A stretch of 64,000 nucleotides of DNA from Streptomyces sp. SCUT-3. GTDB taxonomy: Bacteria; Actinomycetota; Actinomycetes; Streptomycetales; Streptomycetaceae. This document shows, in pieces, positions 1 to 33,007 of this stretch. The translations under genes were made by a program, and so were the position numbers. Every line of letters begins with the position of its first letter. Position 1 is the stretch's first letter. The notes beneath the pieces were generated by a model. It was not told where the DNA came from. It was given only the letters and a program-made list of their open reading frames with translations, and made no database searches. Location of the stretch: NCBI RefSeq assembly GCF_014083985.1, contig NZ_CP046907.1, forward strand, positions 2,770,001-2,834,000. Reading direction: 5' to 3'.

Positions 1-502
1 CTCCGGGGACCCCGGCGGCCCGCTGTGGCTCGGCCACGACGGCACCCTCGACGGCGGCTCGTGCAACGTCCGGGTCAACCCGTCCACCGGCACCGCCCTG
101 GCCTTCACCACCAACTCCACCACCGGACTGGCCGCCTGGGAGGACCTGGCCGACGCGCTGGACGACGCCGGACTGCGGGTGGGCCGCTACCGCCAGCCCG
201 CCCCGAGCAGCCTGCCGTACCGGGCGGGCGAGCGGCTGACCGGCGAGTACGTCAACGGGGACCTGGGCATCCGCGTCTCCCCCGGGCGCGGCGGCAGCCT
301 GCGGTTCGACGTCCGCAACGGGCTCTCCGGCGTCCTGACGGTCGGCTCCGACCTCACCTTCTCCGTGCGGACGGCGGACCGCGACGAGGTGGTGTTCAGC
401 GGCCGCTTCCTGGCCTCCCGCGGATCCGGCCCGGTGGACCTGATGCAGTACAACGGGCGGACGCTGTGCCGGAGCGAGGCCCTCGTCCGGCACGTCGCCT
501 GA
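1..502 (+). CDS. Serine hydrolase, PBP/beta-lactamase fold, probable trans-acting NRP cyclase (3' end only)
   Basis: Only the last ~166 codons are in the window, read from base 2 to the TGA at 500-502. The first visible residues contain a GHDGTLDGG stretch, which fits the third catalytic motif (His-x-Gly) of class C beta-lactamase-like hydrolases. A hydrophobic strand with ALAFTTNS follows. The last ~100 residues form a small beta-rich domain resembling the lipocalin-like C-terminal domain of SurE-type cyclases. The SxxK and Tyr motifs would lie upstream. From family knowledge, stand-alone PBP-type thioesterases (surugamide SurE, desotamide-type pathways) release and macrocyclise NRPS chains that end in a D-residue or Gly. 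The neighbouring NRPS lacks a thioesterase and ends in an epimerase, which supports this role. An ordinary esterase or beta-lactamase is the alternative. Confidence 0.72.
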   Translation, partial: SGDPGGPLWLGHDGTLDGGSCNVRVNPSTGTALAFTTNSTTGLAAWEDLADALDDAGLRVGRYRQPAPSSLPYRAGERLTGEYVNGDLGIRVSPGRGGSLRFDVRNGLSGVLTVGSDLTFSVRTADRDEVVFSGRFLASRGSGPVDLMQYNGRTLCRSEALVRHVA

Positions 503-523
503 CCGGCCGCGGCCGGTCAGGCG
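496..523 (+). terminator. Perfect palindrome overlapping the cyclase stop codon
   Basis: Two perfect 13-base arms (CGCCTGACCGGCC and its complement) are separated by GC and span the stop codon. It is a strong hairpin without a U-tract, as is usual in Streptomyces, and probably ends or attenuates transcription before the NRPS genes. Confidence 0.55.
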
Positions 524-768
524 GCGATCCAGCGGCCGGTCCAGCGGCCGGTCCCGCGGCCGGAGCGCCCCGCCCCGGCACGTCGGCCCCCTCGCCCGCC
601 CGCCGCGTCCCTCGCCGCCCCTGCACGTCCCGCGCCGTCCCGCACGATCCGCGCCGCCGGCCCGGCCGGCGGCCGCGACCCATGCCCGTACGAAGCCGTG
701 CCCGGGTGCAGCACGCTCTCCTGCCTCACCGCGGCACGGCTCACCGCGAACAATGAGGAGTAGGAACC
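524..768 (+). promoter_or_regulatory. Gap upstream of NRPS 1 with short direct repeats and an RBS
   Basis: This stretch has no convincing gene. It holds three imperfect copies of CAGCGGCCGGTC near 530-565. A GAGGAG ribosome-binding site at 755-760 sits 8 bases before the GTG start at 769. No clear -10/-35 pair or 11-bp SARP repeat is visible, so the NRPS genes may be transcribed from farther upstream. Confidence 0.4.
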
Positions 769-15170
<14,402 letters not shown>

Positions 15171-15173
15171 TCC

Positions 15174-18100
15174 GTGGACCGGAACGCGGCCGGGCACTCC
15201 CGCGACAACGACCCGATCCCCTTTGTGGACCCACCGGTGGAGGACCGCGCCATGAACGTCGACCCCAAGGCCAGGCTGCGCGAGGAGATGCGGCGCAGGC
15301 TGGCCCAGAGGCAGCTCAGACAGGACCGCGACCGGATCGTGCCCGTCCCCCGGCCCGGGCACGGGGACGGGGGCGGGGACGGCGGGGAGGTGAGCGGGGA
15401 CGCAGGGCTGCCCCTGTCGTTCTCCCAGCAGCGGCTGTGGTTCCTCGACCGGGTCGAGCGCGGGCGGGCGGACTACAACTCCGGCTTCTGCCTGGACCTG
15501 CGCGGCGGGTTGGACGCCGGGGCGCTGCGCCGGGCGTTCGCCGCGCTCGTCCACCGGCACGAGGTGCTGCGCACCTCCTTCCGCGAGGTCGACGGGCGGG
15601 GCGTGCAGGTGGTGCACGGGACCGACCGGGCCGCGGCGGACGTGGACTTCGAGGAGTCCGCCGCGCCGCCAGGCGGCGAGGAGGCCCTGGCCGACGCCGT
15701 GCAGCGGTGCTACGCACAGCCGTTCGACCTCGAGCAGGGCCGGCTGCTGCGGGTGCGCCTGTTCCGGGCCGCCGGGACGCCGGCGGACGAGGTCCCGGCG
15801 GGTGACGCTCCGGCGGACGGGCCGCGGCACGTGCTGCTGGTGGTGATGCACCACATCGTCACCGACGGCTGGTCCACGGGCGTGCTGCGCTCCGAGCTGG
15901 ACCGGCTGTACCGGGCGGCCGTCGCCGACCCCGGGGCGGGGCCCGCCCGGCTGCCGGGGGCCGCCGGCCTGGACGTGCTGCGGGTGCAGTACGCGGACTA
16001 CGCGGTGTGGCAGCGGGGCCGGGCGGACGGGCCCGGGTACGAGCGGTCTCTGGCGTACTGGCGGGAGCGGCTGGCCGGTGCCGGGCCGCTGGAGTTCCCC
16101 ACCGACCGGCCGCGTCCGCCGGTGCGGGGCACCGCCGGCGCGTCCCACCGGTTCCGCGTCCCGGCGCAGGCCGCGGCGGCGGCGCGGGAGGCCGCGGAGG
16201 CGGGCGGCGCGAACCTGTTCATGGTCCTGGTGGCCGGGGTGCAGCTGCTGCTGTCGCGCTGGACGGGCTCCTCCGACGTGGTGGTGGGCACCGTGGTCGC
16301 GGGCCGGGACGATCCGCAGCTGCGCGACCTGGTCGGGTTCTTCGTCAACACCGTGGCGCTGCGCGGGCGGGTCGACGAGCGGGAGTCGTTCGGCGGGCTC
16401 CTCGCCGGCGTCAGGGACGGCGTGCTGGCCGACTTCGACCACGCCCACGTGCCGTTCGACTCGGTGGTGGACGCGGTGCTGGACGAGCGGGACCCGGCCG
16501 TCCCTCCCCTGGTGCAGGCCACGGTGGTGCTGCAGAACGTCGACAGCGGGCAGGGCGCCTCCCTCGGCGGCCTGGAGGCGCGGGACTTCCCGCTGCGCCG
16601 CGAGCACTCGGTGTTCGACCTGACCTTCGAGTTCCACGAGGACGCCGACGGCATCGACGCCGCGATCGAGTACAGCACCGAGATCTTCGACGCCACGACG
16701 GTGGCCGCCCTGGCCGAGCGGCTGTGCCGCGTCCTGGCCTCGGCGGCCGACCCCCGGCCGCTGCGGGCGCTCGACCCGCTCACCCCCTCCGACCGGGCCC
16801 TCGTCGCGGCGGGCCGAACGGCCTCGGGCACGGCGGACGTTGCGGCGGACGTTGCGGCGGGCGACCCGGACTGCGGTGCGGGCGGCCCGGGCGGCGGCCC
16901 CGCCGAGGAGGTTCCGCTTCCCCGGACCCTGACCGCGCTGTTCGCCGAGCAGGTCGCCCTGCGGCCGGACGCCGTCGCCGCGGTGTCCGCCGACGAGCGG
17001 CTGAGCTTCGCCGAACTCGACGACCGCGCCGGGCGGTTCGCCGCCGTCCTGCTCTCGCGGGGCCTGCGCCGCGGCGAGTACGTGGGGGTCTGCACGGAGC
17101 GCGGCACCGACCAGGTGGCCGCGCTGCTGGGCATCGTGCGGGCCGGCGGGGTCTACCTGCCGCTGGACCCCGCCTATCCGGCCGACCGGCTGGAGTACAT
17201 GGTCCGCGACTCGGGCGTGCGCACGGTCGTCGTCGAGGGGCCGGGGCAGGACGGCGGCACGGGCGGCACGGGCGGCACGGGCGGCCCCACGGCAGGCGGA
17301 ACCGGCGCGGACGGCCTGCCGGAGGGCGTGGAGCGGATCCCGCTGGGCCTGCTGCGGGAGGAGGCCGCGCGCTGCGGGCCGGCCGACGCCCCCTTCCCCG
17401 TCCGCGTCGACGACGCCGCCTACGTCATCTACACCTCCGGCTCCACCGGCCGCCCCAAGGGTGTGGTGGTCACCCACCGCGGCGTGGCCGCCCTGGCCGC
17501 GACGCAGGGCGGCCGCCTGGGCGTGTCGGAGGGCAGCCGGGTGCTGCAGTTCGCCTCGCCCAGCTTCGACGCGGCGGTCGCCGAGCTGGCCGTGGCGCTG
17601 CTCAACGGCGGCACCTCGGTGGTGCTGCCGCGCGAGCGGCTGCGCGGCCACGGGCTGGTGACCGCGCTGCGCGAGTACGGGATCACGCACGTGACGCTGC
17701 CCCCGGCCCTGCTGTCGGGGCTGTCCCCGCAGGACCTGGATCCGGTGTCCGTGCTGATGGTGGCGGGCGAGGCCTGCCCGGGGAGCTGGTGGAGGCGTTC
17801 TCCGCGGGGCGCCGCATGCACAACGGGTACGGGCCCACCGAGACCACCGTGTGCGCCTCGATGAGCGGCCCGCTGTCCGGGGGCGGCGTCCCGCCGATCG
17901 GCACGCCGGTGGCCGGCACCCGCTGCCACGTGCTGGACCGCTGGCTGCGGCCGGTCGGGCCCGGCGTGCCCGGGGAGCTGTACATCGCGGGCGACGGGCT
18001 GGCGCGCGGCTACCGGAACCGTCCCGGGCCGACGGCGGAACGGTTCGTCGCCGATCCGTTCGGGCCGCCCGGGTCGCGGATGTACCGCTCGGGGGACGTG

Positions 18101-21100
18101 GTGCGGTTGCGCGCCGACGGGCAGCTGGAGTTCGTCGGCCGGGCGGACGGCCAGGTGAAGATCCGCGGCCACCGGATCGAGCCGGGCGAGGTCGAGTCCG
18201 TGCTGCTGCGGCTGCCCGGTGTGTCGGGCGCCGTGGTGGACGTGGTGCGGGCGCCGGGCGCGGGGGGCGCCGGGGCCGGCGGCGGGGAACGCCGGCTGGT
18301 GGCCCACGTGGTGCCCTCGGAGCCCGGGGCCGCGTCCCCGGCGGTGCTGCGGGAGCAAGCGGCCGGGCTGCTGCCCGACTACATGGTCCCGGCGGCCTTC
18401 TGCCTGCTGGAGTCGATCCCGTTGACCGCCAACGGCAAGGTCGACCGGGCGGCGCTGCCCGCCGTCGACTGGGCGGGCCAGTCGGACGCGGGGCACGTGG
18501 CGCCGCGCACCCCCGACGAGGAGGCGCTCGCCGCCGTCTGGGCCGACCTGCTGGGCCTGGACCCGGCCCGGGTGGGGGTGCACGACAACTTCTTCCGGGT
18601 CGGCGGGGACTCGATCGGCGGCATCCGGCTCGTCTCCCGGGTGGCGGACGCACTGGGCGTGCGGCTTCCGCCGCGCGTCCTGTTCGACCGTCCGACGGTC
18701 GCCGGGCTCGCCGCCGCCGTGGACGCCGCCCGCGCCGCCACCGGCACGGACACCGGTGCGGACGCCGGTGCTGCCACCGGTGCGGACACCGGTGCGTCCG
18801 GGGCCGTCCGGGACGCCGCGTCCGGCGGCGGCACCGGCGGGCCGGGCGCGGACCGCATCCCGCGGGCCCCGCGCGGCAGCGACCTGCCGCTGTCGTACGC
18901 GCAGCGACGGCTGTGGTTCCTGGACGAGTTCGAGCCGGGCGGTGCCGAGTACAACTCCGGCGGCGCCCTGCGGATGACCGGGCCGCTGGACGTGCCCGCA
19001 CTGGAGGCGGCCCTCGGGGCGCTGGTGCACCGGCACGAGTCGCTGCGGACCGTCTTCGCCTCCCGGGACGGCCGGCCCGTCCAGGTGGTGCAGGATCCGG
19101 GCCCGGTGCGGCTGCCCGTGACCGACCTCACCGGCCGGCCGGAGGAGCTGGACCGGGTGCTCGGCGAGGAGGTGCGGCGGCCGTTCCCGCTCCGGGAGGG
19201 CCCGCTGCTGCGGTTGCTGCTGGCCCGCCTGGCCGAGGACGACCACGTGCTCCTGCTGTGCATGCACCACATCGTCACGGACGCCTGGTCGATGTCGGTC
19301 CTGGTCCGCGAGCTCGGCGCCCTGTACTCGGCGGCGCTGCGCCGGGAGGACACCGGCCCCGAAGGTGCCGAAGGCGCCGCCGGTGCCGCGGACCCCGCCG
19401 GGCTGGCCCGTCTCGCCGGCCTGGGCGAACCGCCCCTGCAGTACGCGGACTTCGCCGTGTGGCAGAACGGGGCGGGGGGCGGTGAGGCGTTCGCCGCCTC
19501 CGTGGAGCACTGGCGCGAGCGGCTCGCGGGCGCGGCGCCGCTGGAGCTGCCCACCGACCGGCCGCGCCCGCCGGTGCGCGGCACCGCCGGCGCCGTGCAC
19601 CGCTTCGAGGTGGACGCGGCGGTCCTCGGCGGGCTGCACCGGCTCGGCCGCGAGCACGGCACCACGCTGTTCATGACGCTGACCGCCGCCGTGCAGCTGC
19701 TGCTGTCGCGGTGGACGGGGCAGGACGATGTCGTCGTCGGCACCGTCACCTCCGGGCGGGAGCGCACGGAGCTGGAGGACGTCGTCGGGTTCTTCGTCAA
19801 CACGCTGGCGCTGCGCACGCGCGTCGACGAGTCGGCGACGGTCGGCGGGCTGCTCGCGGCGGTGCGGGAGACCGTCCTGGACGCCTTCGGCCACGCCCAC
19901 GTGCCCTTCGACAAGGTGGTGGAGGCGGTGGCGCCCGAGCGCGACCCCTCCCGGCCCACCCTGGTGCAGGCCGTGGTGTCGCTGCAGAACGCCCCCGAGT
20001 CGGCGCCGGTCCTCGACGGGCTGCGGGTGGAGGACCACCCGCTGTCCCGCGAGCACTCGCTGTTCGACCTCAGCCTGGACTTCGGCGAGTCCGGCGGGCG
20101 GCTGCTCGGCGCGCTCGAGTACGACACCGCCCTGTTCGAGCCGGAGACCGTCGCCCGCCTGGCCGGCCGGCTGACCGCCCTGCTGGAGCTGATGGCGGAG
20201 CACCCCGGCCGTCCGATCAGGGAGCTGGACCCGCTCGCCGGTGACCCCCTGCCCGTTCCGGAGGCCGCCGGGCCGGCCCTGCCCGCGGACGCCGTCCGGG
20301 TGCCGGAACGGCTGACCCGGGTGGCGGCCGAACACCCGGACCGGCCGGCGCTGACCGCCGGGGAGGTCACCGTCTCCTTCGGCGAGCTGGAGGCGCGGGT
20401 CAACCGGCTGGCCCGGCTGCTCGCCGCCTCCGGCACCGGGCCGGGCGACCGCGTCGCCCTGCTCCTGCCCCGCACGGACGACGCGGTGGTGGCGGTGTTC
20501 GCCGTGCTGCGCGCCGGGGCCGCGTACGTGCCCCTGGACCCGTCCCACCCCGCCGGGCGGATCCGCACCGTCGTCGGGCAGGCGCGGCCGCGGGCGGTCC
20601 TGGCGCTGGAGTCCGCCGAGCAGGACCTGCGGGACCTCCTCGGCCCCGGCACGGAGGTCGTCGCGCTCGACGGCGCGGCGACCCTCGCCCGGCTCGCCGC
20701 CCTGGACGCCTCCCCCCTGCGCGACGAGGAGCGCACCGCGCCGACGGCCGACGCCGACCCGGCCTACGTGATGTACACCTCCGGGTCCACCGGCACCCCC
20801 AAGGGCGTGGTGGTCGACCACCGCAACCTGCGGGCCATGGCGGAGGGCTACCGCGCCACGGTGCTGGAGCCCCTGGGTGCGGGCGGCGGCGCGGGTGGCT
20901 GCGGTGTGTCCGGCAGTACGTCCGGCGGCGGTGCGTCCGGCGGCGGGCAGCTGACCGCGGCGCACATCGCCGCCTGGACCTTCGACGCCTCCTGGGACCC
21001 CCTGGTGTGGCTGCTGGACGGCCACCACCTGCACGTGATCGACGAACGCACCCGGCTGGACGCCGAGGAGCTGTGCCGCTACCTGCACGACCACCGCGTC

Positions 21101-23689
21101 GACTACTTCGACACCACCCCCTCCTACCTCACCCAGCTGGTCGCGGCCGGTCTGCTGGGCGAGGGACGTCACCGGCAGCGGGTGATCACGGTGGGCGCGG
21201 AGCCCCTGGACGGGGCGCTGGCCGCCCGGCTGCGGGACGCCGGGGTGTGCAGCCACAACTTCTACGGCCCCACCGAGAACACCGTGAACAGCCTGTGCTG
21301 GACGGTCCGGGAGTCGGACCGCCCGCTGGTCGGCCGGCCCGTGCCGGGCGTGCGGGCCCGGGTGCTGGACGCCTGGCTGCGGCCCGTGCCGGTCGGCGTG
21401 CACGGCGAGCTGTACCTGGGCGGCGAGTGCGTCGCCCGGGGGTACTCGGGACGGCCGGACCTGACGGCGGAACGGTTCGTCGCCGACCCGTACGGCCCGC
21501 CCGGGTCCCGCGCGTACCGCACCGGCGACGTGGTGCGCTGGACCGCGGGCGGGGAGCTGGAGTTCGTGGGCCGGGCCGACGACCAGGTCAAGGTGCGGGG
21601 CTTCCGGATCGAGCCGGGCGAGGTCGAGGCCGTGCTGTGCCGGGTGCCGGGCGTCCGGCAGGCCGCGGTCGTGGTCCGTGAGGACCGGCCGGGCGTCAGG
21701 CGCCTGGTGGCCTACGTGGTCGGCGGTCCGTCCGGCGGTGACGGCTCGCCCGGTGACGGCCCGTCCGGCGGTGACGCCCCGAACGGCGGTGACGGACCGT
21801 CCGGCGGTGCCGCCGAGGCCGGGGAGGGCCCCTCCCTCCCGGACGCCCGCGCCGTGCGGGCCGCGGCGGCCGAGGCCCTGCCGGAGTACATGGTCCCGGC
21901 CGCGGTGGTCCCCCTCGCGGAGCTGCCGCTGACCGCGAACGGGAAGCTGGACCGCCGGGCCCTGCCGCAGCCGGCCCACGACGACCTCGCCGGCGCCGCG
22001 TACGTGCCCCCGCGCACCCCCACCGAGCAGCTGCTCGCCGGGATCTGGGCCGGGCTGCTGGGCGTGGACCGGGTCGGCGTCGAGGACAACTTCTTCGACC
22101 TCGGCGGCGACTCGGTCCTGAGCATCCAGCTGGTCTCCCGGGCCCGCCGGGCCGGCCTGGCCCTGTCCTCGAAGGACGTGTTCGTGCGGCAGACCGTCGC
22201 CGGCCTGGCCGCGGCCCTGGACGAGGCCGCGGCCGCGGGCGGCGACGGCCCGGCGGGCCCGGCCGGTGCGGGGCCGGGCGGGATCCCCGCCGAGCAGGGT
22301 CCCGTCAGCGGCGAGGTGGTGCTCACCCCGGTCCAGCGGTGGTTCCTCGACACCCACCCCGCGGCCCCCGGGCACTTCGACATGTCGCTGCTGGCGGAGC
22401 TCGCGCCGGAGGCCGATCCGGGCCTGCTGGAGCCCGCCGTGGCCGCCGTGCTGGACCGGCACGACATGCTGCGGCTGCGCGTCGAGCGCCGGGAGGACGG
22501 CGGGTGGGTGCAGCGGATCGTGCCCGAGGAGGACGTGCGGCGGGTGCTGCGCCGTGTCGACGCCTCCTCCGCCCCCACCGGCGCCGGCCTGGAGCGGCTG
22601 GTCGCCGGGGAGGCGCGGCGGGTCCGGCCGGAGCGGCGGCTCGCCGAGGGGCCGCTGTTCGAGACCGTGGTGTTCGACCGGGGCGCGGCCGGGCCGCCGC
22701 TCGTGCTGTTCGGCGCGCACCACATGGTGGTGGACGCGGTGTCCTGGCGGGTGCTGCTGGAGGACGTCGCGACGGCGTACCGGCAGCTGGCCGAGGGGAA
22801 GCCGGCCGACCTGGGGGTGAAGTCGACCTCGTTCCGGCAGTGGGCCGCCCGGCTGGCGGAGTTCACCCGGCAGGGCGGTTTCGACGAGGAGGCCGGGTAC
22901 TGGGCCTCCGTGGCGGCCGACGCGGTCACGGAGGTCCCCCTGGACACCCCGGGCGGGAGCAACACGGTCGCCTCCCAGGACGTGGTGTCCTCCGCGCTGT
23001 CCGCCGAGGACACCCGGCTGCTGCTGCACCGGGTCCCGGGCGCCTTCCGCAGCCGGATCAACGACGTGCTGCTGGCCGCGCTGGGCCGGGTGCTCCACGG
23101 CTGGGCCGGGACCTCCCGGGTGCTGGTGGAGCTGGAGGGGCACGGCCGGGAGGAACTGTTCGACGACGTCGACCTGTCCCGGACGGTGGGGTGGTTCACC
23201 ACCGTCCACCCGCTCGTGCTCGACGTGCCCGCCGACGGCGACTGGCGGCGGGCCGTCTCCGCGGTCAGGCGGCAGCTGCGGCAGGTGCCGCGCAACGGCA
23301 TCGGCTTCGGCGCCCTGCGGTACCTCGGGGGCGAGGACCGCGCCGCCGCCCTGCGCGACCTGCCGCCCGCGCCGGTCTCCTTCAACTACCTGGGCCGGTT
23401 CGGCGGCGGCACCGGCAACGGCACCGGCGACGGCGGCGACGGGGACGGCTTCCTCCGCCGGCTCCTGGACTCCCCCGGCGGCGACCACGCGCCGGAGGAG
23501 CTGCGCACCAACCTGATCGACGTCACCGGCAGCGTCGCCGGCGACCGGATGGAGTTCTCCTGGACCTACTCGACCGCACTGCACCACCGTGGGACCGTCC
23601 AGCGGCTGGCGGACGGGTTCTCCGCCGCGCTGCGGGAGATCGCCCGCGCCGCGGAAACCGGCGCCCGCCCCCGCCGGGACGCCCGCTGA
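15174..23689 (+). CDS. Two-module NRPS (C-A-T / C-A-T-E) ending in an epimerase, with one apparent -1 frameshift
   Basis: This second enzyme adds residues 5 and 6. The GTG lies 3 bases after the stop of the first NRPS, with GGAGGG inside that gene as RBS, so translation is coupled. About 75 N-terminal residues, including a charged helix, precede the first C domain and could be a docking element. Approximate domains in bases are C5 15400-16790 (HHIVTDGWS), A5 16925-18470, T5 18490-18730 (Ser 18611), C6 18880-20250 (HHIVTDAWS), A6 20290-21985, T6 22000-22230 (Ser 22112) and E6 22290-23640 ([10 protein letters not shown]). Both C domains look LCL. Hand-aligned pockets are A5 DAATMAGVC and A6 roughly DADDIVFVN; A6 is uncertain but shows two acidic residues, hinting at a polar or basic substrate. 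No thioesterase follows E6. A C appears to be missing in the run at 17777-17779. With it restored the protein has 2838 residues. Confidence 0.9.
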
Positions 23690-23765
23690 CCACCCGTCCG
23701 GCCGCCGGCCGCACGGACCCCGCACGGCCCGAGACCCCCGCACGACCCGAGAGAGGAAGAGACCG

Positions 23766-23975
23766 ATGACCAACCCGTTCGAGCACGAGGACGCCACCTA
23801 CCTGGTCCTGGTGAACGAGGAGGGCCAGCACTCGCTGTGGCCGTCCTTCGCCGAGGTCCCGGCCGGCTGGGAGGTGGCGCTGGGGGAGACGTCCCGGGCC
23901 GAGGCCGTGGCGTACGTCGACAGCCACTGGACCGACATGCGTCCCAGGAGCCTGGCCGCGGCCATGGACTCCTGA
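23766..23975 (+). CDS. MbtH-like protein
   Basis: This 69-residue protein starts at ATG 23766 behind a GAGAGAGGAAGAG ribosome-binding site. It shows the family hallmarks: NPFE at the start, [10 protein letters not shown], the AGWE motif and a C-terminal SHWTDMRP. MbtH-like proteins bind NRPS adenylation domains and are often needed for their folding or activity. It follows the second NRPS after 76 bases on the same strand, so it most likely serves these A domains and is probably cotranscribed. A strong hairpin after it suggests the operon ends here. Confidence 0.96.
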
Positions 23976-24081: not shown

Positions 24082-26772
24082 CTACTCGCGGACGCCGATG
24101 GCGTCGACGGGGCGGGTGCGCAGGGCCAGGCGGACCGGCAGCATCACCGACAGGACGGCCAGCAGCACGGTGACCGTCACCACCGCCCCGTACACCAGGG
24201 GCGGGCCGGCCGGCAGCGGTGTGCCCAGGAAGCCCAGGTTGAGCAGGGCCAGCGGCACCGCGGCGACCGCGGTGCCGAGCAGCACGGCGACCGCGCACAG
24301 CAGCACCGCCTCCCACCGCAGGGTGCGCAGCACCTGGCGGCGGGTCATCCCGACCAGCCGCATCAGGGCGAACTCGCGCGAGCGGCCCGCGGTGGCGACG
24401 ACCAGGGTGTTGACCACGGCGACGGCGACGTAGCCGAGGATCATGCCCAGTCCGGCCAGGTTGATCCAGGCTGCGCGCACCGACTCCGCCCGGACCCCGG
24501 TGGAGAACCCGTCGTGGCCGAGCACCGAGAGGGTGGGGTACTTCCCGGCCAGGGCGCGCAGGGAGGACTCCACCTCGTCCCGGTCGGCCCCGGGCCGGGC
24601 CCTGACGAGGAGCTGCTCGGGCGCCCCGGCGCCGGTGTGCCCCTCCAGCAGCTCCTGGGGGACCGTCATCTCGCCGAAGGCGGAGCTGCGTTCGTAGGTG
24701 GCGACGAGCCGCACCGGTGCGGGGGTGCCGTCGCCGAGGTAGAGCTCGAGCTCGTCCCCGACGCCGAGGCCGAGGAGCTTCGCCTGGGAGTGCTCCATGG
24801 CCGCGGTCCTGCCCCGCAGGCCGGCCGTGCTGCCCTCCACGACCCCGAGGTCGACGGTCGCGTCGAGGGGGCCGGCGGAGACTCCGCGCGTGGGGAAGCC
24901 CGCGAGTTCGCGGTCCTCCAGCAGCGTGAACGCCAGGAAGGTCTTGGTGGTGGTCACGGCGGTGACGGCGGCCACGCCCGGCACCGCCCGCACGTCCCGC
25001 ACGACCCGGGGCGCGAGGCCGCCCGCACCCCCGCCGGCCAGGACCCAGTCGGCCTTCAGCCCCTGCTCGACCTGGACCTCGGCGGCCGAGGCCAGGGTGG
25101 TCTGGGTGTGGACGAGGGTCACCGTGAAGCCGACGGCCAGGACCAGCGGCATCACCGCGGAGCTCATCCTGCGCAGCGCGGCCGTGCTGTTGGCGACCGC
25201 CAGGAAGCCGCTGACCCGCATCGCGCGCAGCGGCGCGCCGACGACCCGCACCAGCACCCGCACCACGGCGGGCCCCAGCAGCGTCAGGCCGACGACGCAC
25301 AGCAGCGCCCCTCCGCCGGTGCCGGCCGACCCCACCTCGCTGCGCACCACCAGCGGCACCGCGGCGGCGCCGAGGCCGAGGAGCAGGCAGAGCACGCCCA
25401 GGGCGGCCCGCCAGCCGGGCAGTGAGGGGCGTTCGACGGCGGCTTCGCCCATCGCGTCCACGGGGTTGATCCGGGCGGGGCGGTGGGCGGCGACGAGGCC
25501 CGCGGCCACCGCGGTGAGGGCGGTCAGCACGACCGCCCCCAGCAGGGGCAGCGGCCCGGTGCTCAGGGGCAGGTCGGCGGGGACGACACCGAGCCGGGCG
25601 AAGAGCCGGCGCAGCACCTCGGCCAGAGCCGCGCCCGGCAGGCAGCCCAGCACGCCGGCGACGAGGGCGACGAGCAGGGACTCGGCCGCGACGAGGCCGA
25701 GGATCTGCTGCGGGGTGGAGCCGATGGCCCGCAGGACGGCGAACTCGCGGCGCCGCTGGCCGACGGACAGGGCCAGGGTGCCCGCGACCACGAACACGGC
25801 GACGAGCAGCGCGGTGCCGCCGAAGGAGGCGGCGACGGCCAGCAGCAGGCCCTGGGAGGCGTCGACGTCGGGGAACTCCAGGCGCGCGATGTCCGTGCCG
25901 GTGCGGACGGTCACTCCCGCGCCGTCCGTACCGCCCGCGCCGTCCGTGTCCCGCCCGGAGGCCGACGCCGCGTCGCCGGCGGCCCGTTCGACGGCCTCGG
26001 CGAGGTCGTCCGGGTCGGTTCCCTCGCGGGCCAGGACGCCGACGGCGTCGAACCGGTCGGGGACGGCGGACAGCCGGGCGGCCTCGTCCGGGGTGAAGAA
26101 CACCGCCCGCTGCCGCTCCGGGGGCCCGCCGGAGGCCAGGACGGCGGTGCCGGAGACCCGGTAGACGGCGGGCACCGACGCGGTGGCGATCCGCACCTCG
26201 TCGCCGGCCCGCACCCCGGCGGCGCGGGCCGCCCCGGTGTCGAGGACCACCTCGGAGTCCGTCCGCGGGGCCCGGCCGTCGGCCAGTTCGAAGGGGGCGA
26301 GCCGGGCCGACTCCCAGCCGTGGCCGAAGGCCTGCCGCGTCCCGCCGGCACCGGCGCCGGTGTCACCGCCACTGCCACTACCACTACCACTACCACTGCC
26401 GCTGCCGGTGTCACCGCCACCGCCACTGCCGCCCTCGGGGCCGAGGACGGTGACGGGGAAGCTGCGGTCGCCGACCACGGAGGCGACCCCGGGGACGGAG
26501 GCCACCGCCTCCAGCACGTCCCGGGAGAGCCGGGCGCGTTCGGGCAGGGGTTCGGCGACGGTGAAGTCACCGCCGGGTATGCGCAGGATCTGGTCGCCGC
26601 CGACCACCACCGCGGCCGCGGCGTAGCGTTCGGGCCGCACGGTGGTGCGCAGGCCGGACTCGACGAGGATCCCGGAGGCGGCGATCACCGCCGTGCCGCA
26701 GAACAGCGCGACGAACGCGCCGAGGAAGGCGGCCTTGCGGGCCCTCAGGGTCTTCCGGGCGATCTCGAACAC
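24082..26772 (-). CDS. ABC transporter permease, FtsX/MacB family
   Basis: This 896-residue membrane protein starts with a GTG 3 bases after the stop of the ATPase gene upstream. A single N-terminal membrane segment follows a basic stretch. A large extracytoplasmic domain contains a Gly/Ser/Asp low-complexity loop near residues 120-145. Two FtsX-type core units follow, with three-helix blocks near residues 310-440 and again in the last ~130 residues, and an extra helix pair around 465-500. The duplicated layout is typical of 8-10-helix permeases of the MacB/YknZ/BceB type that move peptides or lipids from the membrane. With its ATPase it is a candidate exporter or self-protection system for the nearby peptide. 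Substrate cannot be read from sequence. Confidence 0.88.
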
Positions 26773-26775
26773 GGC

Positions 26776-27486
26776 TCACCGGTCCCCGAGGCGGGCCATG
26801 CGCTCGGCGACCGCTTCCGCCGTGGGCCGGTCCAGCCGTTCCACGAGGAGGCCGTCGGCGAGGAAGAGCACGCTCTGCGCGGAGGCGGCGGCGACCGGGT
26901 CGTGGGTGACCATCAGGACGGTCTGCCCCATGTCGCGGACCACCTCGCGGAAGAGCTCCAGCACCTGCGCGCCGGTGCGCGAGTCCAGGGCGCCGGTCGG
27001 CTCGTCGGCCATGATCATGTCGGGGCGGTTGACCATGGCTCGGGCGATCGCCACGCGCTGCTGCTGGCCCCCGGAGAGTTCGGCAGGCCGCCGGTCCAGG
27101 AGTCCGGCGATGCCCACGCGCCCGGTCACCAGGTCGAACCAGGCCCGGTCGACCGGGGTGCCCGCGAGCCGCAGCGGCATGGTGACGTTGTCCCGCACGG
27201 TCAGCGCCTGGAGCAGGTTGTAGGCCTGGAAGACGAAGCCGACGCGGTCGCGGCGCAGCCGGGTCAGGGCCGCCTCGCGCATTCCGCTCAGTTCGGTGCC
27301 ACCGAGCCGGACGGTGCCGCCGGTGGGGCGGTCCAGACCGGCCGCGCAGTGCAGGAAGGTGCTCTTGCCCGAACCGGAGGGGCCCATTACCGCAGTGAAG
27401 GACCCCTTCGCAAGCTCTACGGAAATACCCCTCAGTGCTTGCACACGGCTTTCTCCCGAACCATAGTCCTTGACTACCCGCTCCAT
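26776..27486 (-). CDS. ABC transporter ATPase, MacB/LolD type
   Basis: This ATPase partners the FtsX-like permease. It carries Walker [10 protein letters not shown], signature LSGGQQQR, Walker [13 protein letters not shown] and the switch His in VTHD, all in the MacB/LolD/BceA pattern. I prefer the ATG at 27486, giving ~236 residues starting MERVVKDYG, because family homology begins there. The open frame continues to a TTG at 27612 through sequence of lower GC that looks non-coding, with a GTG at 27564 as another option. No strong ribosome-binding site precedes any of these starts. It diverges from the sensor kinase gene across about 200 bases that probably hold both promoters. Confidence 0.92.
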
Positions 27487-27685
27487 GACGAGTGCGGGGC
27501 CGGGAGCACCGCCGGAACGTAATTGCCCGACCGGCCCGGAAACAAATCCTGTTTTACTCTCCACGGCACCACCCGGACACGGAAAACCACCTCTCCAAAA
27601 TGTCGCCGACAAACTACCACGGCGTCACAGAAGGACACAACGAACACACTGAGCGTCACCGGGAGCGTAAAGGACCCTGCGGAAC

Positions 27686-28939
27686 ATGCGCGCTGCAGAA
27701 GTTCTCCGATCCGGTCCGGGCATTCTTCGCAGGACTTTTCTGAGCACGCGGAGAAATCTCGATTACCTGCGCGGCGCCGCCGGTTCCGCGATATTTTCCT
27801 GGACCCTCGTGGTGGGCCTTTCCTTCGCCGTACCGCTCTGCGTGGTGGGAATCGGGATCCCCCTGCTGTCGAAGGTGGTCCGGGCGGCGCGCACGTCGTC
27901 CTCGCGGGACCTGGAGCGCAGCCGCCTGCTGACCGGGGGCGGCGGCCCCGGCGCGACGACGGAGCGTGCCGACGCGCTGCGGCGGAGAGCGGCGCCGGCG
28001 TCCCAGGACATCGGCTGGACCGCGGTGAACGCCACGGCCGGGCTGCTGGCCGGGGCGGTGGTGTTCGTCCCGGTCGTCGCGGTCGTGTCCTGCCTGACGG
28101 TCCCCCTGTGGTGGTGGGCACTGCCCGACCCCATGGTTCCCAATCCGGCCCTGTACCCGGTGGACAGCTGGCCCGTCGCCCTGGTCACCCCGCTGGCCGC
28201 GGTCCCGTACCTGGCGCTGCTGGCCTTCCTGGCCCCCCGTGCGGCCGCCTTCCACGCCCGCCTGGCGGAGCGGGTGCTCGCCGGTGACGGCCGGGCCGCG
28301 CTGGCCGCCCGGCTCGCCGAGGTCACCGCCTCCCGGGCCGAGGCGCTGGAGGCGCACGCCGCGGAGCTGCGCAGGATCGAACGGGCCCTGCACGACGGCA
28401 CCCAGAACCGGCTGGTGGCCGTGCGCCTGCACCTGGGGATCGCCGAGCGGCTGCTGGAGGGCGACCCGGCGAAGGCCCGCAGGATCGTCGAGGTCGCCCA
28501 GCTGGCGTCCGAGGAGGCCCTGGCCGACCTGCGGGACGTCGTGCGCAGCATCTACCCCCCGGTCCTCTCCGACCGGGGGCTGGCCGGCGCGGTGACGGCG
28601 CTGACCGCCCGCTGCCCCGTGCCGTGCACCCTGCGGGTCGGGGAACTGGAACGCGCCCCGGCCGCGGTGGAGGTGGCCGCCTACTTCGCCGTCTCCGAGG
28701 CGCTCACCAACGCGGCCAAGCACAGCGGCGCCACCCGGGTGGAGGTCTCCCTGCGCACCGACGGGCGGGCCCTGCACGCCACCGTGTCCGACGACGGGCG
28801 GGGCGGGGCGGCGGAGGAGCACGGGAGCGGGATCGCCGGCATCCGGCAGCGGGTGGCGGCCTTCGACGGCACGACCGAGGTGACCAGCCCGCCGGGCGGT
28901 CCGACGACCATCAGGGTGGAGCTGCCGTGCGCGTTCTGA
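27686..28939 (+). CDS. Sensor histidine kinase, NarL-type (HisKA_3)
   Basis: This 417-residue membrane kinase has hydrophobic segments near residues 33-63, 120-150 and 165-192 with little extracellular sequence. It therefore probably senses within or near the membrane. The dimerisation helix contains ALHDGTQNRL, with the phospho-acceptor His near residue 236. The ATPase domain shows the N-box ALTNAAKHSG near residue 340, DDGRGG and GSGIAGIRQRV. The next gene, its response regulator, overlaps the end by 13 bases. Divergence from the MacB-type ABC genes suggests this pair controls that exporter, as in antibiotic-sensing modules, although Bce-type systems normally use a different kinase family. 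Confidence 0.93.
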   Translation: MRAAEVLRSGPGILRRTFLSTRRNLDYLRGAAGSAIFSWTLVVGLSFAVPLCVVGIGIPLLSKVVRAARTSSSRDLERSRLLTGGGGPGATTERADALRRRAAPASQDIGWTAVNATAGLLAGAVVFVPVVAVVSCLTVPLWWWALPDPMVPNPALYPVDSWPVALVTPLAAVPYLALLAFLAPRAAAFHARLAERVLAGDGRAALAARLAEVTASRAEALEAHAAELRRIERALHDGTQNRLVAVRLHLGIAERLLEGDPAKARRIVEVAQLASEEALADLRDVVRSIYPPVLSDRGLAGAVTALTARCPVPCTLRVGELERAPAAVEVAAYFAVSEALTNAAKHSGATRVEVSLRTDGRALHATVSDDGRGGAAEEHGSGIAGIRQRVAAFDGTTEVTSPPGGPTTIRVELPCAF

Positions 28940-29571
28940 TCGTCGAGGACAACGCCCTGCTGCGGGAGGGCCTGGTGCTGCTCCTGGAGACGGAGGGCAT
29001 CGAGGTGCTCGCCGCGGTGGACGAAGCCCGCGGGCTCCCCCGGCTGGTCTCCGCCCTGCGGCCGGACGCCGTCGTCCTCGACGTGCGCCTGCCGCCCGCC
29101 TTCCGCGACGAGGGACTGCGCGCCGCGGTCGAACTGCGGCGCGCACGGCCCGGGTTCCCCGTCCTGGTGCTCTCCGCGCACGTCGAGGACAACTACGCCA
29201 CCGAGCTGCTGGGCGACGACGCCAGCGGCGTCGGCTACCTGCTCAAGGACCGCGTGGGCAACGTCGCCGAGTTCACCTCCGCGCTGCGCCGGGTCGTCTC
29301 CGGCGGCACGGTGATGGACCCGGAGGTGATCTCCCAGCTGCTGGGCCGCCAGAGCGCCCGGGACCCGGTCGGCAGGCTCACCTCGCGCGAGCGGGCCGTG
29401 CTCGGCCTGATGGCCGAGGGGCGCGACAACGGCGAGATCTGCGCGCTGCTCGGACTGTCGGCCCCGGCGGTGAGCAAGCACATCGGCAACATCTTCACCA
29501 AGCTGGGGCTGCCTCCCTCGGGAGCCGGGCACCGCCGCGTCCTGGCCGTGCTGGCCTTCCTCAACCAGTGA
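28927..29571 (+). CDS. LuxR/NarL-family response regulator
   Basis: This 214-residue protein starts at GTG 28927 inside the kinase gene, giving translational coupling. The receiver domain begins RVLIVEDNALLREG, has the phospho-acceptor Asp near residue 52 (VVLDVRLPP) and the conserved Lys in YLLKDRV. A LuxR-type helix-turn-helix follows at residues ~150-214 (LTSRERAVLGLMAEG, then VSKHIGNIFTKLGL). It is expected to be phosphorylated by the upstream kinase and to bind promoters, plausibly that of the divergent ABC genes. Confidence 0.95.
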   Translation: MRVLIVEDNALLREGLVLLLETEGIEVLAAVDEARGLPRLVSALRPDAVVLDVRLPPAFRDEGLRAAVELRRARPGFPVLVLSAHVEDNYATELLGDDASGVGYLLKDRVGNVAEFTSALRRVVSGGTVMDPEVISQLLGRQSARDPVGRLTSRERAVLGLMAEGRDNGEICALLGLSAPAVSKHIGNIFTKLGLPPSGAGHRRVLAVLAFLNQ

Positions 29572-29609: not shown

Positions 29610-29611
29610 CC

Positions 29612-32600
29612 TCAGCCGACCATCAGCAGCAGGCCCTCCTCCTGGCGCGTCCGGCGGCCCTCGCCGTACTCCCGCCGGAAGCCCTCCGCGCCGAGCCGCT
29701 CGGTCAGCGTCCGCGTCAGCGCCCGCACCCGGGGGTTGCCGCGGTCCCGCGTCCCGCGCAGGGCGGCGGCCACCCCCAGCAGGCGCGCCGACGCCTCCGT
29801 GCGCCCCTCCTCCAGGACGACGGACGCCAGCAGTTCGGCCACCGCGGCCTGCATGCTCAGGTCGTTGCGCCGCACGGTCAGCCCCAGCGCCTCCATCGCC
29901 GCGAGCCGGGCCGCCTTCAGGTCGCCCTCGGCCAGCTCCAGCGAGCCCAGCCGGCACAGCACCTCCAGCCGCAGGTAGTCCCGGTCGAAGACCGCCTCGT
30001 CGAGCAGCCGGAACGCCTTGGCGAACCGGTCCCGGGCGATGGACGGCTGGCGCCGCAGCACGGCCAGCTCGCCCAGGCCGGCCGCGACCATGACGCGGTA
30101 CTCGGGCATCGGGCAGTGGGGGCCGCGCAGCGCGTCGCGGAAGCTGACCTCCGCCGCGTCGTGGTCCCCGGCGCGCATCTGCTCCACGCCCAGCCGGATC
30201 ATGATCTGCGAGAGGTCGTCGGCCGAACCGACCTGCTCGATCGCGCCCTGCGCCTCGCGCAGCAGCGCGATGGCCTCCGCGCTGTTGCCCCGCAGCGAGT
30301 GGAAGCGCGACAGCATGCCGGTCAGCTGGCTGGTCGACCACTGGTCGCCCAGGCCGCGGAAGGACTCCAGTGCCTCCCGCAGGCTGCGTTCGGCCCCGGC
30401 CACGTCGCCCGCCGCCTCGGCCGCGAACCCCAGCGCGGCGCGGCCCGTGGCGCGCGCCCACGGGTCGGGGTGGCCGCAGGCGCGCCGGGCGCTCGCCCCG
30501 AGCTGCTCGTGCTCGCCCACCAGCAGCCAGCACTTGGGCTCGATCAGGGCGAGCAGCGGGTGGCGGGCCATCGCGTCGCAGTCCCGGGCGCGGCGGGCGG
30601 CGTCCCGGATCCCGCGGAAGCGGTCCTCGTCGACCGGCGCGGGCAGCACCAGCCGGACGGCGGTGAAGACCGCGGCCGCCTGCTCGGGCACCCGGTCGCC
30701 CAGGGCCAGCAGTTCGTCGAGCCAGGTGTTCGCCTCCGCGTACCGTCCGCGCATCACCCAGTACCAGCTCAGGGCCAGGCCGAAGCGGACGGCGGTCTCC
30801 ACGTCCCGCCGCTCGACGCAGCGGCGCAGCGCTTGGAGGACGTTGTCGTGCTCGGTGTCGAGCCGGGCGATCCACCGCGGCTGGCCGGGGCCGCGCAGTT
30901 CCTCCGCGGCCCGCTCGGCCAGTTCCAGGAAGTGCGCCGTGCAGGCCGCCTCGGCCCGTTCCGTGCCGCCCGCCTCGGCGAGGCGGTCGCGGCAGTAGGC
31001 GCGGGTGGTCTCGGGCATCCGGTAGCGGGGTTCGCCGGAGGCGGTCTCGCGGACCTGCACCAGTGACTTGTCGACCAGTGAGGAGAGCACGTAGACGACG
31101 TCGTCCGGGGCCGGGCCGGCGTCCGGACCGCGGGCCCCGCCGGGGTCCGCGCCCACGGCCACGGCGGTCTCCAGGCCGGCGCCGTTGCCGACCACCGACA
31201 GCCGCCGGGCGAGGGCCTGTTCGGCTCCGGTGAGCAGTTCCCAGCTCCAGTCCATCATCGCGCGCAGGGTGCGGTGGCGTGCGCCCGCGGCGCGGCTGCC
31301 ACCGGTCAGCAGCCGGAACCGGTCGTCCAGCCGGGCGGTGACCTGCTGCAGGGGCATCGACCGCAGCCGGGCCGCGGCCATCTCGATGGCCAGCGGCAGC
31401 CCGTCGAGCTGCTGGCAGATCTCCACCACCGCCGCGGTGTTGGCGGGTGTCAGGGCGAAGTCCGGCTGCACCAGGGACGCCCGGTCGCAGAAGAGCTGCA
31501 CCGCGGTGGAGCGGCCCGCGTCCTCCAGGGACGGGGGCAGTTGCAGCGGCCCGACCCGCTGGAGGACCTCCCCGGTGACCGCCAGCGGCTCCCGGCTGGT
31601 CGCCAGCAGGCGCAGTCCGGGGCAGCTCTCCAGCAACCGCCCGGCGAGGCGGGCGGCGTCCGCGACCAGGTGCTCGCAGTTGTCGAGCACCAGCAGGACG
31701 CGCCGGGCGGACAGGCTCGCCACCAGCCGGTCGAAGCGGCTGCGGCCGAGCACCGGCGGCCCGAGCAGCGGTGTGTCGTGCAGGCCGAACGCCGCCGCCA
31801 CGGCCTCCGTGACGTCCTGCCCGGCGGAGAGCTGGGCCAGCTCCACGACGCACACCGGGTCGGCGGTCCCGGAGGCCGCCCGCGCGGCGAACTCGGTGGC
31901 CAGCCTGGTCTTGCCGACCCCGCCGGGTCCGAAGAGCGTCACCAGCCTCGACTCCCTCAGGTTCCCCGCCAGCTGGTCCAGTTCGCGCTCGCGGCCGACG
32001 AAGCGGGTCAGCGGGCCGGGCGGGGCGCCCGTGACGGGGCGGGCCGGGTGGACCGGGGGGACCGGGCGGGCGGGGGCGCCGGGGCGGGAGGGGGCGACCG
32101 GAGCACCGGGTGCCTGCGGGAGGCCGGAAAGGGGGCCGGGGAGGGGGCCGGGGGCGCCCGGCCCTCCGCGGTCCGCGGCCCCGAAGGGCCGCCCGGCGTT
32201 GCCCCGCAGCACCCCCGTGTGGATGCGGCGCAGCTGCGGGGAGGGGACGGTGCCGAGCTCCTCCGCCAGCGCGGACCTGATGCGCTCGTAGGCGGCGAGC
32301 GCCTCGGCCTGCCGCCCCGAGGCGTCCAGGGCGCGCATCGTCAGACCGGCCAGCCGCTCCCGCAGGGGGTGGGCGTCGCTCAGCGCGTGCAGTTCGGCGA
32401 GGACCTCGCCGGCGCGGCCGAGTTCCAGCTCCGCCTCCGCGCGGTCCTCGACGGCGGACAGGCGTATCTCCTCCAGCCGGGTCGCGGCGCGGGCCGCGAA
32501 GCCGGTGCCGGCGAACTCCGCCAGCGGAGCCCCGCGCCACAGCCCCAGGGCCTCCCGCAGGACCTGCGCCGCCGGTTCGGGCGAACGCCTCTGCAGCAGG

Positions 32601-33007
32601 CGGCGGCCGGCCGCCGCCAGGTGCTCGAAGCGGTGGACGTCCACGTCCTGCACGGGGACGTTGAGCGCGTAGCCGCCGGGCCCGGAGGCCAGCGCCCGGC
32701 CCGCCTCGTCGCCGCCGAACTCCTGCAGCGTGCGGCGGGCCCGGGAGACCAGCCGCTGCAGGGCGTTGAGCCCGCCCGCGGCGGGGGGCTCGTCCTCCCA
32801 CAGGTCGTCTATCAGTGTGCCGACGGGGACGACCTCGGACGGGCTGAGTGCGAGGCGGGCCAGCAGCATGGCCACCCGGCGCCCGCCGACCGGGGCCGAC
32901 CGGCCGCCGCGGTCCCGCAGTTCCAACGGACCCAACAGGTATAAGCACACGAACGGCAGTCTTTCAGACGCTTTTTCCCCCGTCACCCCCAGGGGTCGAA
33001 CAGTCAC
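29612..33007 (-). CDS. SARP/AfsR-type transcriptional regulator (wHTH-BTAD-NB-ARC-TPR)
   Basis: This is a large regulator of 1131 residues. A winged-helix DNA-binding domain lies at about residues 20-100, followed by a bacterial transcriptional activation domain to ~250 and a Pro/Gly-rich linker to ~330. An NB-ARC-type ATPase has P-loop FGPGGVGKT, and the C-terminal half is TPR-like. This is the AfsR-like architecture of pathway-specific and global activators of secondary metabolism. The start overlaps the stop of the DUF5937 gene by 4 bases. Leu22 is encoded by TTA (complement 32942-32944), so translation should depend on the bldA tRNA. It is last in a four-gene operon whose leader contains 11-bp repeats typical of SARP binding, suggesting autoregulation. 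It may also activate the NRPS genes, but no SARP site was seen there. Confidence 0.92.
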   Translation of the reverse strand: MTVRPLGVTGEKASERLPFVCLYLLGPLELRDRGGRSAPVGGRRVAMLLARLALSPSEVVPVGTLIDDLWEDEPPAAGGLNALQRLVSRARRTLQEFGGDEAGRALASGPGGYALNVPVQDVDVHRFEHLAAAGRRLLQRRSPEPAAQVLREALGLWRGAPLAEFAGTGFAARAATRLEEIRLSAVEDRAEAELELGRAGEVLAELHALSDAHPLRERLAGLTMRALDASGRQAEALAAYERIRSALAEELGTVPSPQLRRIHTGVLRGNAGRPFGAADRGGPGAPGPLPGPLSGLPQAPGAPVAPSRPGAPARPVPPVHPARPVTGAPPGPLTRFVGRERELDQLAGNLRESRLVTLFGPGGVGKTRLATEFAARAASGTADPVCVVELAQLSAGQDVTEAVAAAFGLHDTPLLGPPVLGRSRFDRLVASLSARRVLLVLDNCEHLVADAARLAGRLLESCPGLRLLATSREPLAVTGEVLQRVGPLQLPPSLEDAGRSTAVQLFCDRASLVQPDFALTPANTAAVVEICQQLDGLPLAIEMAAARLRSMPLQQVTARLDDRFRLLTGGSRAAGARHRTLRAMMDWSWELLTGAEQALARRLSVVGNGAGLETAVAVGADPGGARGPDAGPAPDDVVYVLSSLVDKSLVQVRETASGEPRYRMPETTRAYCRDRLAEAGGTERAEAACTAHFLELAERAAEELRGPGQPRWIARLDTEHDNVLQALRRCVERRDVETAVRFGLALSWYWVMRGRYAEANTWLDELLALGDRVPEQAAAVFTAVRLVLPAPVDEDRFRGIRDAARRARDCDAMARHPLLALIEPKCWLLVGEHEQLGASARRACGHPDPWARATGRAALGFAAEAAGDVAGAERSLREALESFRGLGDQWSTSQLTGMLSRFHSLRGNSAEAIALLREAQGAIEQVGSADDLSQIMIRLGVEQMRAGDHDAAEVSFRDALRGPHCPMPEYRVMVAAGLGELAVLRRQPSIARDRFAKAFRLLDEAVFDRDYLRLEVLCRLGSLELAEGDLKAARLAAMEALGLTVRRNDLSMQAAVAELLASVVLEEGRTEASARLLGVAAALRGTRDRGNPRVRALTRTLTERLGAEGFRREYGEGRRTRQEEGLLLMVG

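What the first reader, a model, noticed from the sequence alone, without database searches (positions are those of the whole stretch)
1..23975. Six-module NRPS that ends in an epimerase and lacks a thioesterase, next to a PBP-type cyclase: predicted cyclic hexapeptide
The sequence shows A-T, C-A-T-E, C-A-T-E, C-A-T, C-A-T, C-A-T-E with no starter C and no TE. It is preceded by a hydrolase end with a GHDG motif and a lipocalin-like C-terminus. From the surugamide/desotamide precedent, such cyclases join a free N-terminus to a D-configured C-terminus in trans. The L-D-D-L-L-D pattern follows from E domains and matching LCL/DCL condensation domains. I cannot match it to a named product, so it may be new.
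Basis: partly seen in the sequence, partly recalled or inferred. Interest (0 to 1): 0.75.

Follow-up and report, generated by a model that had tools for sequence, protein, structure and literature searches.

The report
Six-module cyclic-peptide synthetase with stand-alone cyclase
An actinobacterium carries a gene cluster that probably builds a ring-shaped six-residue peptide and closes the ring with a separate penicillin-binding-protein-like enzyme; this is a new member of a known kind, whose extra module looks like a duplication that may have happened twice in evolution.

Summary
The 492-aa hydrolase cut by the window's left edge (window -976 to 502) is a PBP-type thioesterase: its best solved relatives are SurE (2.4e-95) and Ulm16 (1.1e-73), the next is at 1.3e-21; catalytic residues align; a tree places it with NRPS-linked cyclases, apart from 13 other hydrolases. 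Downstream lie two NRPS genes (769-15170, 15174-23689): A-T, C-A-T-E, C-A-T-E, C-A-T / C-A-T, C-A-T-E, no starter C, no TE match, then MbtH (23766-23975). The C-domain tree separates C3, C4 (after E) from C2, C5, C6, giving L-D-D-L-L-D. Nocardiopsis ganjiahuensis has the same architecture in two open frames. About eight frame changes break the window's NRPS genes; they run one way, and other genes of this genome are broken too, so read error is likelier than decay, but unproven. Two relatives have five modules; in both six-module loci the extra module is a within-locus near copy, suggesting parallel 5-to-6 expansion. A new member of a known kind; product unidentified.

The parts
1..502 (+). 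3' part of the PBP-type thioesterase (cyclase) gene; the whole gene is L009:9024-10502 = window -976..502, 492 aa
   Evidence: PF00144 6.3e-58; SurE 6ksu 2.4e-95, Ulm16 8fek 1.1e-73; tree
769..15170 (+). NRPS gene 1: A-T, C-A-T-E, C-A-T-E, C-A-T; seven of the eight frame changes lie here
853..2612 (+). module 1: A1 (code DAFTMAGVC, aromatic-like), T1
2631..7253 (+). module 2: C2 (LCL group), A2 (DAYFLGVTF, Ile/Val-like), T2, E1
7344..11863 (+). module 3, the extra module: C3 (DCL group), A3 (DAFLMGCVC), T3, E2; T3-E2 is 95% identical in protein to T2-E1, and A3 resembles A1 outside the pocket stretch
11954..15155 (+). module 4: C4 (DCL group), A4 (DAYFWGVTF, Ile/Val), T4
15174..23689 (+). NRPS gene 2: C-A-T, C-A-T-E, ending directly after E; one frame change near 17800
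15396..18748 (+). module 5: C5 (LCL group), A5 (DAATMAGVC, pieced from two frames, aromatic-like), T5
18872..23653 (+). module 6: C6 (LCL group, HHIVTDA motif), A6 (DAWDTGFVN, unresolved), T6, E3
23766..23975 (+). MbtH-like protein gene, 69 aa
   Evidence: PF03621 6.3e-27;
24083..27612 (-). ABC exporter: FtsX-type permease (24083-26772) and ATPase (26777-27612), found after the NRPS in three relatives too
27686..29571 (+). two-component system: sensor kinase (27686-28936) and LuxR-type response regulator (domains in the ORF 28624-29571)
29613..33007 (-). BTAD/NB-ARC (SARP-type) regulator, found in the same block in three relatives

Best explanation
A biosynthetic gene cluster for a head-to-tail cyclic hexapeptide. 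Two NRPS proteins load and join six residues: L-aromatic (likely), D-Ile/Val, D-hydrophobic, L-Ile/Val, L-aromatic (likely), D-residue of unknown identity. The chain begins with a free amino group, because module 1 has no starter C, and ends as a D-aminoacyl thioester on the last carrier, because the protein ends in E without TE. The stand-alone PBP-type thioesterase is proposed to take the chain onto its serine (S90) and let the N-terminal L-residue attack it, closing the ring. MbtH is expected to assist the A domains, and the conserved FtsX-type ABC pair probably exports the peptide. Shown by sequence: domain order, catalytic motifs, phylogeny, C-domain groups, conserved neighbours. Inferred: the cyclisation itself, the ring size of six, the residue identities and export.
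For: PBP-type TE identity: SurE and Ulm16 far ahead of the other solved structures; the SurE alignment spans residues 23-483; S90, K93, Y181, N183, H338 align to SurE S63, K66, Y154, N156, H305; SurE G235 is a Gly in the segment AAAGGLV; the matching Gly here is G260; 36 cyclase-like rows incl. SurE and Ulm16 split from 13 other hydrolases, SH-aLRT 99. Genomic link: NRPS domains beside the cyclase in 28 of 29 family relatives fetched (the miss, L038, is a locus cut short by its contig) and in 4 of 4 named actinobacterial loci (one of them, L014, is the same genome as one of the 29), against 0 of 6 loci of more distant non-actinobacterial hydrolases. Architecture without starter C or TE. The same six-module architecture follows a 55% identical cyclase in N. 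ganjiahuensis in two open frames of 4663 and 2638 codons, stop to stop. C3 and C4 group with surugamide C domains that follow E; C2, C5 and C6 with those that do not (branch 100/100). The precedent, PBP-type TEs joining an L N-terminus to a D C-terminus, was read in passages of PMC11735501 and PMC7459860.
Against: The NRPS reading frames are broken about eight times in this assembly, so an intact enzyme is not shown in this genome. No product, transcript or enzyme assay is at hand. The A6 pocket has a length difference at position 238 and its code cannot be trusted. C6 has HHIVTDA instead of HHxxxDG. MIBiG and antiSMASH were not available.
Confidence: 0.82

Rival explanations
1. The cluster is a decayed remnant: the NRPS genes carry real frameshifts and make no product.
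For: About eight frame changes in about 23 kb of NRPS. In the second NRPS cluster of this genome the frame changes seen between domain hits go both ways, so a uniform base-loss error is not shown genome-wide. One A-domain match elsewhere holds an in-frame TGA.
Against: In the window's NRPS all eight changes go in the same direction, which mixed mutational decay would not favour; the ten stretches read, about 7600 codons, hold no stop (stretches chosen as open). Frame breaks also occur in other genes of this genome, such as an A-T gene near 5.464 Mb (same direction) and the NRPS cluster at 2.42-2.45 Mb, so they are not special to this cluster. Two breaks fall in the same sequence context in duplicated copies. 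dN/dS against G262 for five domain pairs is 0.38-0.51, though this speaks of the past, not of recent decay; between within-locus copies it is higher (0.56-0.71).
Confidence: 0.09
2. The chain is released as a linear peptide or by another enzyme, and the PBP-like protein is a self-resistance or peptidase gene.
For: PBP-like hydrolases are diverse; surugamide F was first found as a linear peptide (PMC7459860 passages).
Against: Sequence and tree place it among cyclases next to NRPS genes; there is no PF00975 match nearby; the C-terminal E fits SurE's need for a C-terminal D-residue (PMC11735501 passages).
Confidence: 0.04
3. Cyclisation by the PBP-type TE, but ring size is not six because a module is skipped or used more than once, or a dimer forms.
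For: Module 3 is a near-copy and close relatives have five modules; SurE can ligate and cyclo-dimerise a tetrapeptide (PMC11735501 passages).
Against: Module 3 shows its domains and the C, T and E motifs looked for, spread over several frames, and its A3 pocket differs from A1, which fits a working module with its own substrate.
Confidence: 0.05

Closest known systems
Surugamide cluster (SurA-D, SurE)
   Same: TE-less NRPS ending in E plus stand-alone PBP-type TE; D-accepting C after E. The code DAYFWGVTF occurs at A domains 1 and 3 of the control locus in G348, taken as SurA because its cyclase is nearly identical to SurE and the reported order is I-A-I-I-K-I-F-L (PMC11012974 passages).
   Different: Surugamides are octa- and decapeptides made by four NRPS proteins with another residue order; the cyclase of G348 is 41-43% identical to this one.
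Ulleungmycin/desotamide hexapeptide clusters (Ulm16, WolJ)
   Same: Hexapeptide with PBP-type TE; Ulm16 is the second-best solved relative.
   Different: Ulm16 sits on a different branch of the tree. No halogenase or allo-Ile gene was seen among the flanking ORFs scanned with Pfam, which were not all ORFs.
Nocardiopsis ganjiahuensis DSM 45031 locus (L012; NZ_ANBA01000006)
   Same: Same domain order, same downstream ABC/sensor/BTAD block, 55% identical cyclase.
   Different: A3 code DAMIVGAIA instead of DAFLMGCVC; it resembles DAMLAGAVA of the control locus, which by recalled surugamide F order is a Leu module. The extra module looks like a separate duplication. I made no paper search by this strain's name.
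Nocardiotide A (cyclic hexapeptide of Nocardiopsis sp. UR67)
   Same: Cyclic hexapeptide with two Trp plus Ile, Val, Leu and Ala (PMC6174345, parts 1-2 of 5 read).
   Different: Published as all-L, with Ala-Val-Leu between the two Trp; the cluster predicts three D-residues and a different order, so it is not matched.

Membership tests
PBP-type thioesterase (SurE family) | Beta-lactamase/PBP-like domain with Ser-x-x-Lys, Tyr, Asn, His | tested here: met
   PF00144; S90, K93, Y181, N183, H338 align with SurE
PBP-type thioesterase (SurE family) | C-terminal lipocalin-like domain | tested here: met
   By sequence only: the alignment to SurE runs to residue 483 of 492, and the second Ulm16 stretch covers 257-484; no structure was predicted
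PBP-type thioesterase (SurE family) | Stand-alone gene next to an NRPS without TE that ends in E | tested here: met
PBP-type thioesterase (SurE family) | Phylogenetic placement with characterised members | tested here: met
   quick IQ-TREE, SH-aLRT 99 for the split from 13 other hydrolases; two characterised members in the tree (SurE, Ulm16); no bootstrap, some long outgroup branches
PBP-type thioesterase (SurE family) | Joins N-terminal L- to C-terminal D-residue | tested here: inconclusive
   Domain logic fits: no E in module 1, E in module 6, C-domain groups match. The reaction itself was not tested.
PBP-type thioesterase (SurE family) | Head-to-tail macrolactam formation in vitro | not testable with these tools
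   needs enzyme assay
Desotamide family of cyclic peptides | Six to ten residues, TE-less NRPS, stand-alone cyclase | tested here: met
   As gene anatomy; family description from PMC7459860 abstract and passages. No product was seen.
Desotamide family of cyclic peptides | Shared residue pattern of the named members | tested here: inconclusive
   Codes suggest Aro-Ile/Val-X-Ile/Val-Aro-?; A6 is unresolved; residue lists of the members were not compared one by one

The most novel reading that the evidence does not exclude
The hexapeptide line arose from a pentapeptide ancestor by duplicating the same module (rear of A2, T, E, next C) independently in a Streptomycetaceae lineage and in Nocardiopsis, each time with a different A core in the new module, while cyclases of one clade serve both five- and six-module lines. 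This would be a natural, repeated ring-expansion experiment. The rival within this reading is one ancestral duplication with gene conversion and two losses. (Probability set at 0.5, not 0.55 as first drafted, because the E tree does not place the window pair next to the E domain of its five-module relative G262.)
Probability: 0.5. Interest if true: 0.5.

Novelty: new member of a known kind. Interest (0 to 1): 0.4.

Why it matters
It adds a clade of PBP-type cyclases, found in two Streptomycetaceae-type genomes and three Nocardiopsis loci, whose NRPS lines have five modules in two cases and six in two (one locus is too short to tell). That gives matched enzymes for asking what sets ring size in these biocatalysts, and a natural example of a module added together with a changed adenylation pocket. 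The predicted D-D step and the aromatic/branched residues give a clear mass-spectrometry target. If only the routine reading is true, it is one more orphan cyclic-peptide cluster.

Tried and rejected
Nocardiotide A as the product was rejected on residue order and all-L stereochemistry. Bonsecamin was not matched: its cluster has a TE domain and a different logic (PMC8400726 passages). Six predicted codes were searched in full text: only DAYFWGVTF was found, in one paper, where it is listed as Val; six near variants gave no paper. A search for PBP-type TE terms and 'nocarcyclin' gave 14 papers, none holding the word nocarcyclin. The A6 specificity could not be read because of a one-residue length difference in the pocket loop. 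A structure prediction was not run: the cyclase lies mostly outside the window, in a locus fetched by a tool that the prediction tool does not name among its accepted sources. Rows left out of the cyclase tree: the duplicate L021, two short rows (L020, L068), and three own-genome paralogues that gave no phmmer hit (L066, L069, L070); of 11 own-genome paralogues fetched, 7 are in the tree. The C tree holds 24 rows; C2 of G262 (cut by unknown bases) and two later surugamide-locus C domains were not put in, and C3 and C4 of the window went in as fragments. My first Pfam scan upstream used wrong-strand ORFs for three of six proteins and the region was scanned again on the other strand. NRPS adjacency was judged on the 30 loci returned, one of them the window's own, not on all 76 genomes with a match.
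Full report
WHERE IT IS. The window is bases 2,770,001-2,834,000 of a single 6,075,149-base contig, 99% complete; 2-kb steps of the window have 70-78% G+C.

THE CYCLASE. The gene cut by the left edge of the window is a 492-codon ORF, L009:9024-10502. Pfam finds only PF00144 (6.3e-58). Against solved structures, SurE (6ksu, 2.4e-95) and Ulm16 (8fek, 1.1e-73) are far ahead of the next hit, an alkaline D-peptidase (1.3e-21), and the SurE alignment covers residues 23-483, so it includes the C-terminal lipocalin-like part. S90, K93, Y181, N183 and H338 align with SurE S63, K66, Y154, N156 and H305. The Ser/His/Asn/Lys and Ser/Lys/Tyr/His sets are described in PMC11735501 and PMC7459860 (passages); the SurE residue numbers are recalled, and the script printed them 17 too low because of its numbering offset. 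SurE G235, said to shape the pocket for the C-terminal D-residue (PMC11735501 passage), is a Gly in the segment AAAGGLV and lines up with G260 here.

PHYLOGENY AND NEIGHBOURHOOD OF RELATIVES. A search of 394 genomes of the family, drawn from a larger group, gave matches at 1e-40 or better in 76, the window's own included. Of the 30 loci returned, one is the window's own; 28 of the other 29 hold A, T, C or E domains within about 1.5 kb of the cyclase, and the miss (L038) is a locus cut short by its contig. The four named actinobacterial loci also do (4 of 4; L014 repeats one of the 29), and six loci of more distant hydrolases do not (0 of 6).

THE SYNTHETASE. Domain order by Pfam over the genome and by phmmer with window seeds is A-T, C-A-T-E, C-A-T-E, C-A-T in gene 1 (769-15170) and C-A-T, C-A-T-E in gene 2 (15174-23689). 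All six carriers have GGDS and all three E domains have HHxxVDxVSWR. No PF00975 thioesterase match lies within about 323 kb. A 69-aa MbtH gene follows at 23766-23975. In a tree of 24 C domains, 15 (window C2, C5, C6, their counterparts, and the control's C domains that do not follow E) separate on a 100/100 branch of length 1.54 from 9 (window C3 and C4, as fragments, their counterparts, and the control's C domains that follow E). The control is the G348 locus, whose cyclase is nearly identical to SurE; I gave its C domains their labels by position. Hence L-D-D-L-L-D.

RESIDUES. Nine-letter codes, read on a recalled PheA frame, are A1 DAFTMAGVC, A2 DAYFLGVTF, A3 DAFLMGCVC, A4 DAYFWGVTF, A5 DAATMAGVC (pieced from two frames) and A6 DAWDTGFVN. 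DAYFWGVTF occurs at A domains 1 and 3 of the control locus, where surugamide has Ile, sometimes Val (PMC11012974 passages), and is listed as Val in PMC9113097 (passage); so A2 and A4 are Ile/Val-type. A1 and A5 resemble the PheA code (T278, V330, C331), which suggests an aromatic residue; this is inference. A3 is hydrophobic but not resolved, and A6 is not readable. As a check on the method, other codes look sensible against the surugamide order, for example DFWNVGMVH, a Thr-type code (recalled); one of the eleven control domains gave no code.

FRAME CHANGES. tblastn of the N. ganjiahuensis proteins, Pfam and motif positions, three-frame translations and a G+C-by-frame plot place about eight frame changes in the two genes. 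All eight run in the same direction (frame 1 to 3, 3 to 2, 2 to 1); the three close together near 7690-7935 rest on short stretches (50 and 32 codons), one with a Pfam hit and one read by eye. The ten stretches between hold no in-frame stop, partly by construction. Two changes fall in the same sequence context in the duplicated copies. Elsewhere in this genome an unrelated A-T gene near 5.464 Mb changes frame in the same direction, while the second NRPS cluster at 2.42-2.45 Mb changes frame repeatedly and in both directions, some of which may be gene boundaries or missed changes. dN/dS against G262 for five domain pairs is 0.38-0.51; between within-locus copies it is 0.56-0.71 in the window and 0.65 in N. 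ganjiahuensis. Read error in this assembly is the likelier cause, but only resequencing can show it.

A CONSERVED CLUSTER. In G262, N. ganjiahuensis and Nocardiopsis sp. N85 the same block follows the NRPS: FtsX-type permease (61, 47 and 50% identity), ABC ATPase, sensor kinase and BTAD regulator. Relatives of the window's upstream ABC ATPase (42-44%) lie beside that block in the two Nocardiopsis loci, and sensor-kinase/regulator matches also lie upstream of the cyclase in the three Nocardiopsis loci. Among the ORFs scanned in L009 and in window 24-33 kb no oxidase, halogenase or methyltransferase was seen; a multicopper oxidase and an acyl-CoA dehydrogenase lie further out, at 41.7 and 51.5 kb. 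Not every ORF was scanned. The predicted peptide is therefore probably little modified.

THE EXTRA MODULE. N. ganjiahuensis has exactly the window's architecture in two open frames of 4663 and 2638 codons, stop to stop. Nocardiopsis sp. N85 and G262 have five modules, lacking one C-A-T-E; G262 has 1137 unknown bases in its stretch, around module 2, but the distance from C2 to the end of A2 fits a single module. In the window, 5018-8856 repeats at 9665-13438 (87% identity over 3.9 kb), and A1-T1 (894-2482) matches 8783-10359 (86%); in N. ganjiahuensis an equivalent unit repeats at 84%; no repeat of at least 150 bases and 80% was found in N85 or G262. In the C tree W_C3 pairs with W_C4 (100/99), with G262_C3 next (99/98), and G395_C3 pairs with G395_C4 (100/99), with N85's C3 next (95/95): the pattern expected of two separate duplications. 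In the E tree W_E1 pairs with W_E2 and G395_E1 with G395_E2 (both 100/100), but there the window pair does not group with G262_E1, which falls outside a weakly supported set (80/88) of the two pairs and N85's E1; this does not speak for the two-duplication order. Two separate duplications are the simplest reading; gene conversion after one old duplication with two losses is not excluded. Over 215 compared positions W_A3 is 85% identical to A1: eight of eleven 20-residue steps are at 85-100%, and three steps that line the pocket are at 50-70%, so its specificity was probably changed after, or by, recombination. NRPS diversification by recombination is known (PMC8097286, seen only as a search listing with the start of its abstract).

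VERDICT. This is an orphan cyclic-hexapeptide cluster with a PBP-type cyclase, a new member of a known kind. The possibly repeated five-to-six module expansion is the part most worth following.

Noticed in passing
own genome about 2,418,700-2,446,500 (L071, L072): A second large NRPS cluster on the minus strand, with TE matches (2,419,366 and 2,445,853) and an MbtH, and with frame changes of its own in both directions.
   Followed up: partly
own genome near 5,464,200 (L073) and window 769-23689: Frame breaks in an unrelated A-T gene as well as in the window's NRPS, which suggests base errors in this assembly.
   Followed up: partly
window 24083-33007: A block of FtsX permease, ABC ATPase, sensor kinase, response regulator and BTAD regulator that recurs after the NRPS in three relatives (response regulator less clearly), so the cluster likely extends to about 33 kb.
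   Followed up: partly
L009 4891-8938 (window -5109 to -1062), minus strand: Another ABC ATPase/permease pair with a sensor kinase and LuxR-type regulator upstream of the cyclase; the ATPase has 42-44% identical relatives on the far side of the NRPS in two Nocardiopsis loci, the permease and kinase had no match there at 1e-10.
   Followed up: partly
Three of its A domains also change frame.
   Followed up: yes
window 41691-43249 (minus), 44266-46028 (minus), 51516-54796 (plus): Multicopper oxidase, sulfate permease, acyl-CoA dehydrogenase and M18 aminopeptidase genes, apparently ordinary chromosome content outside the cluster.
   Followed up: no
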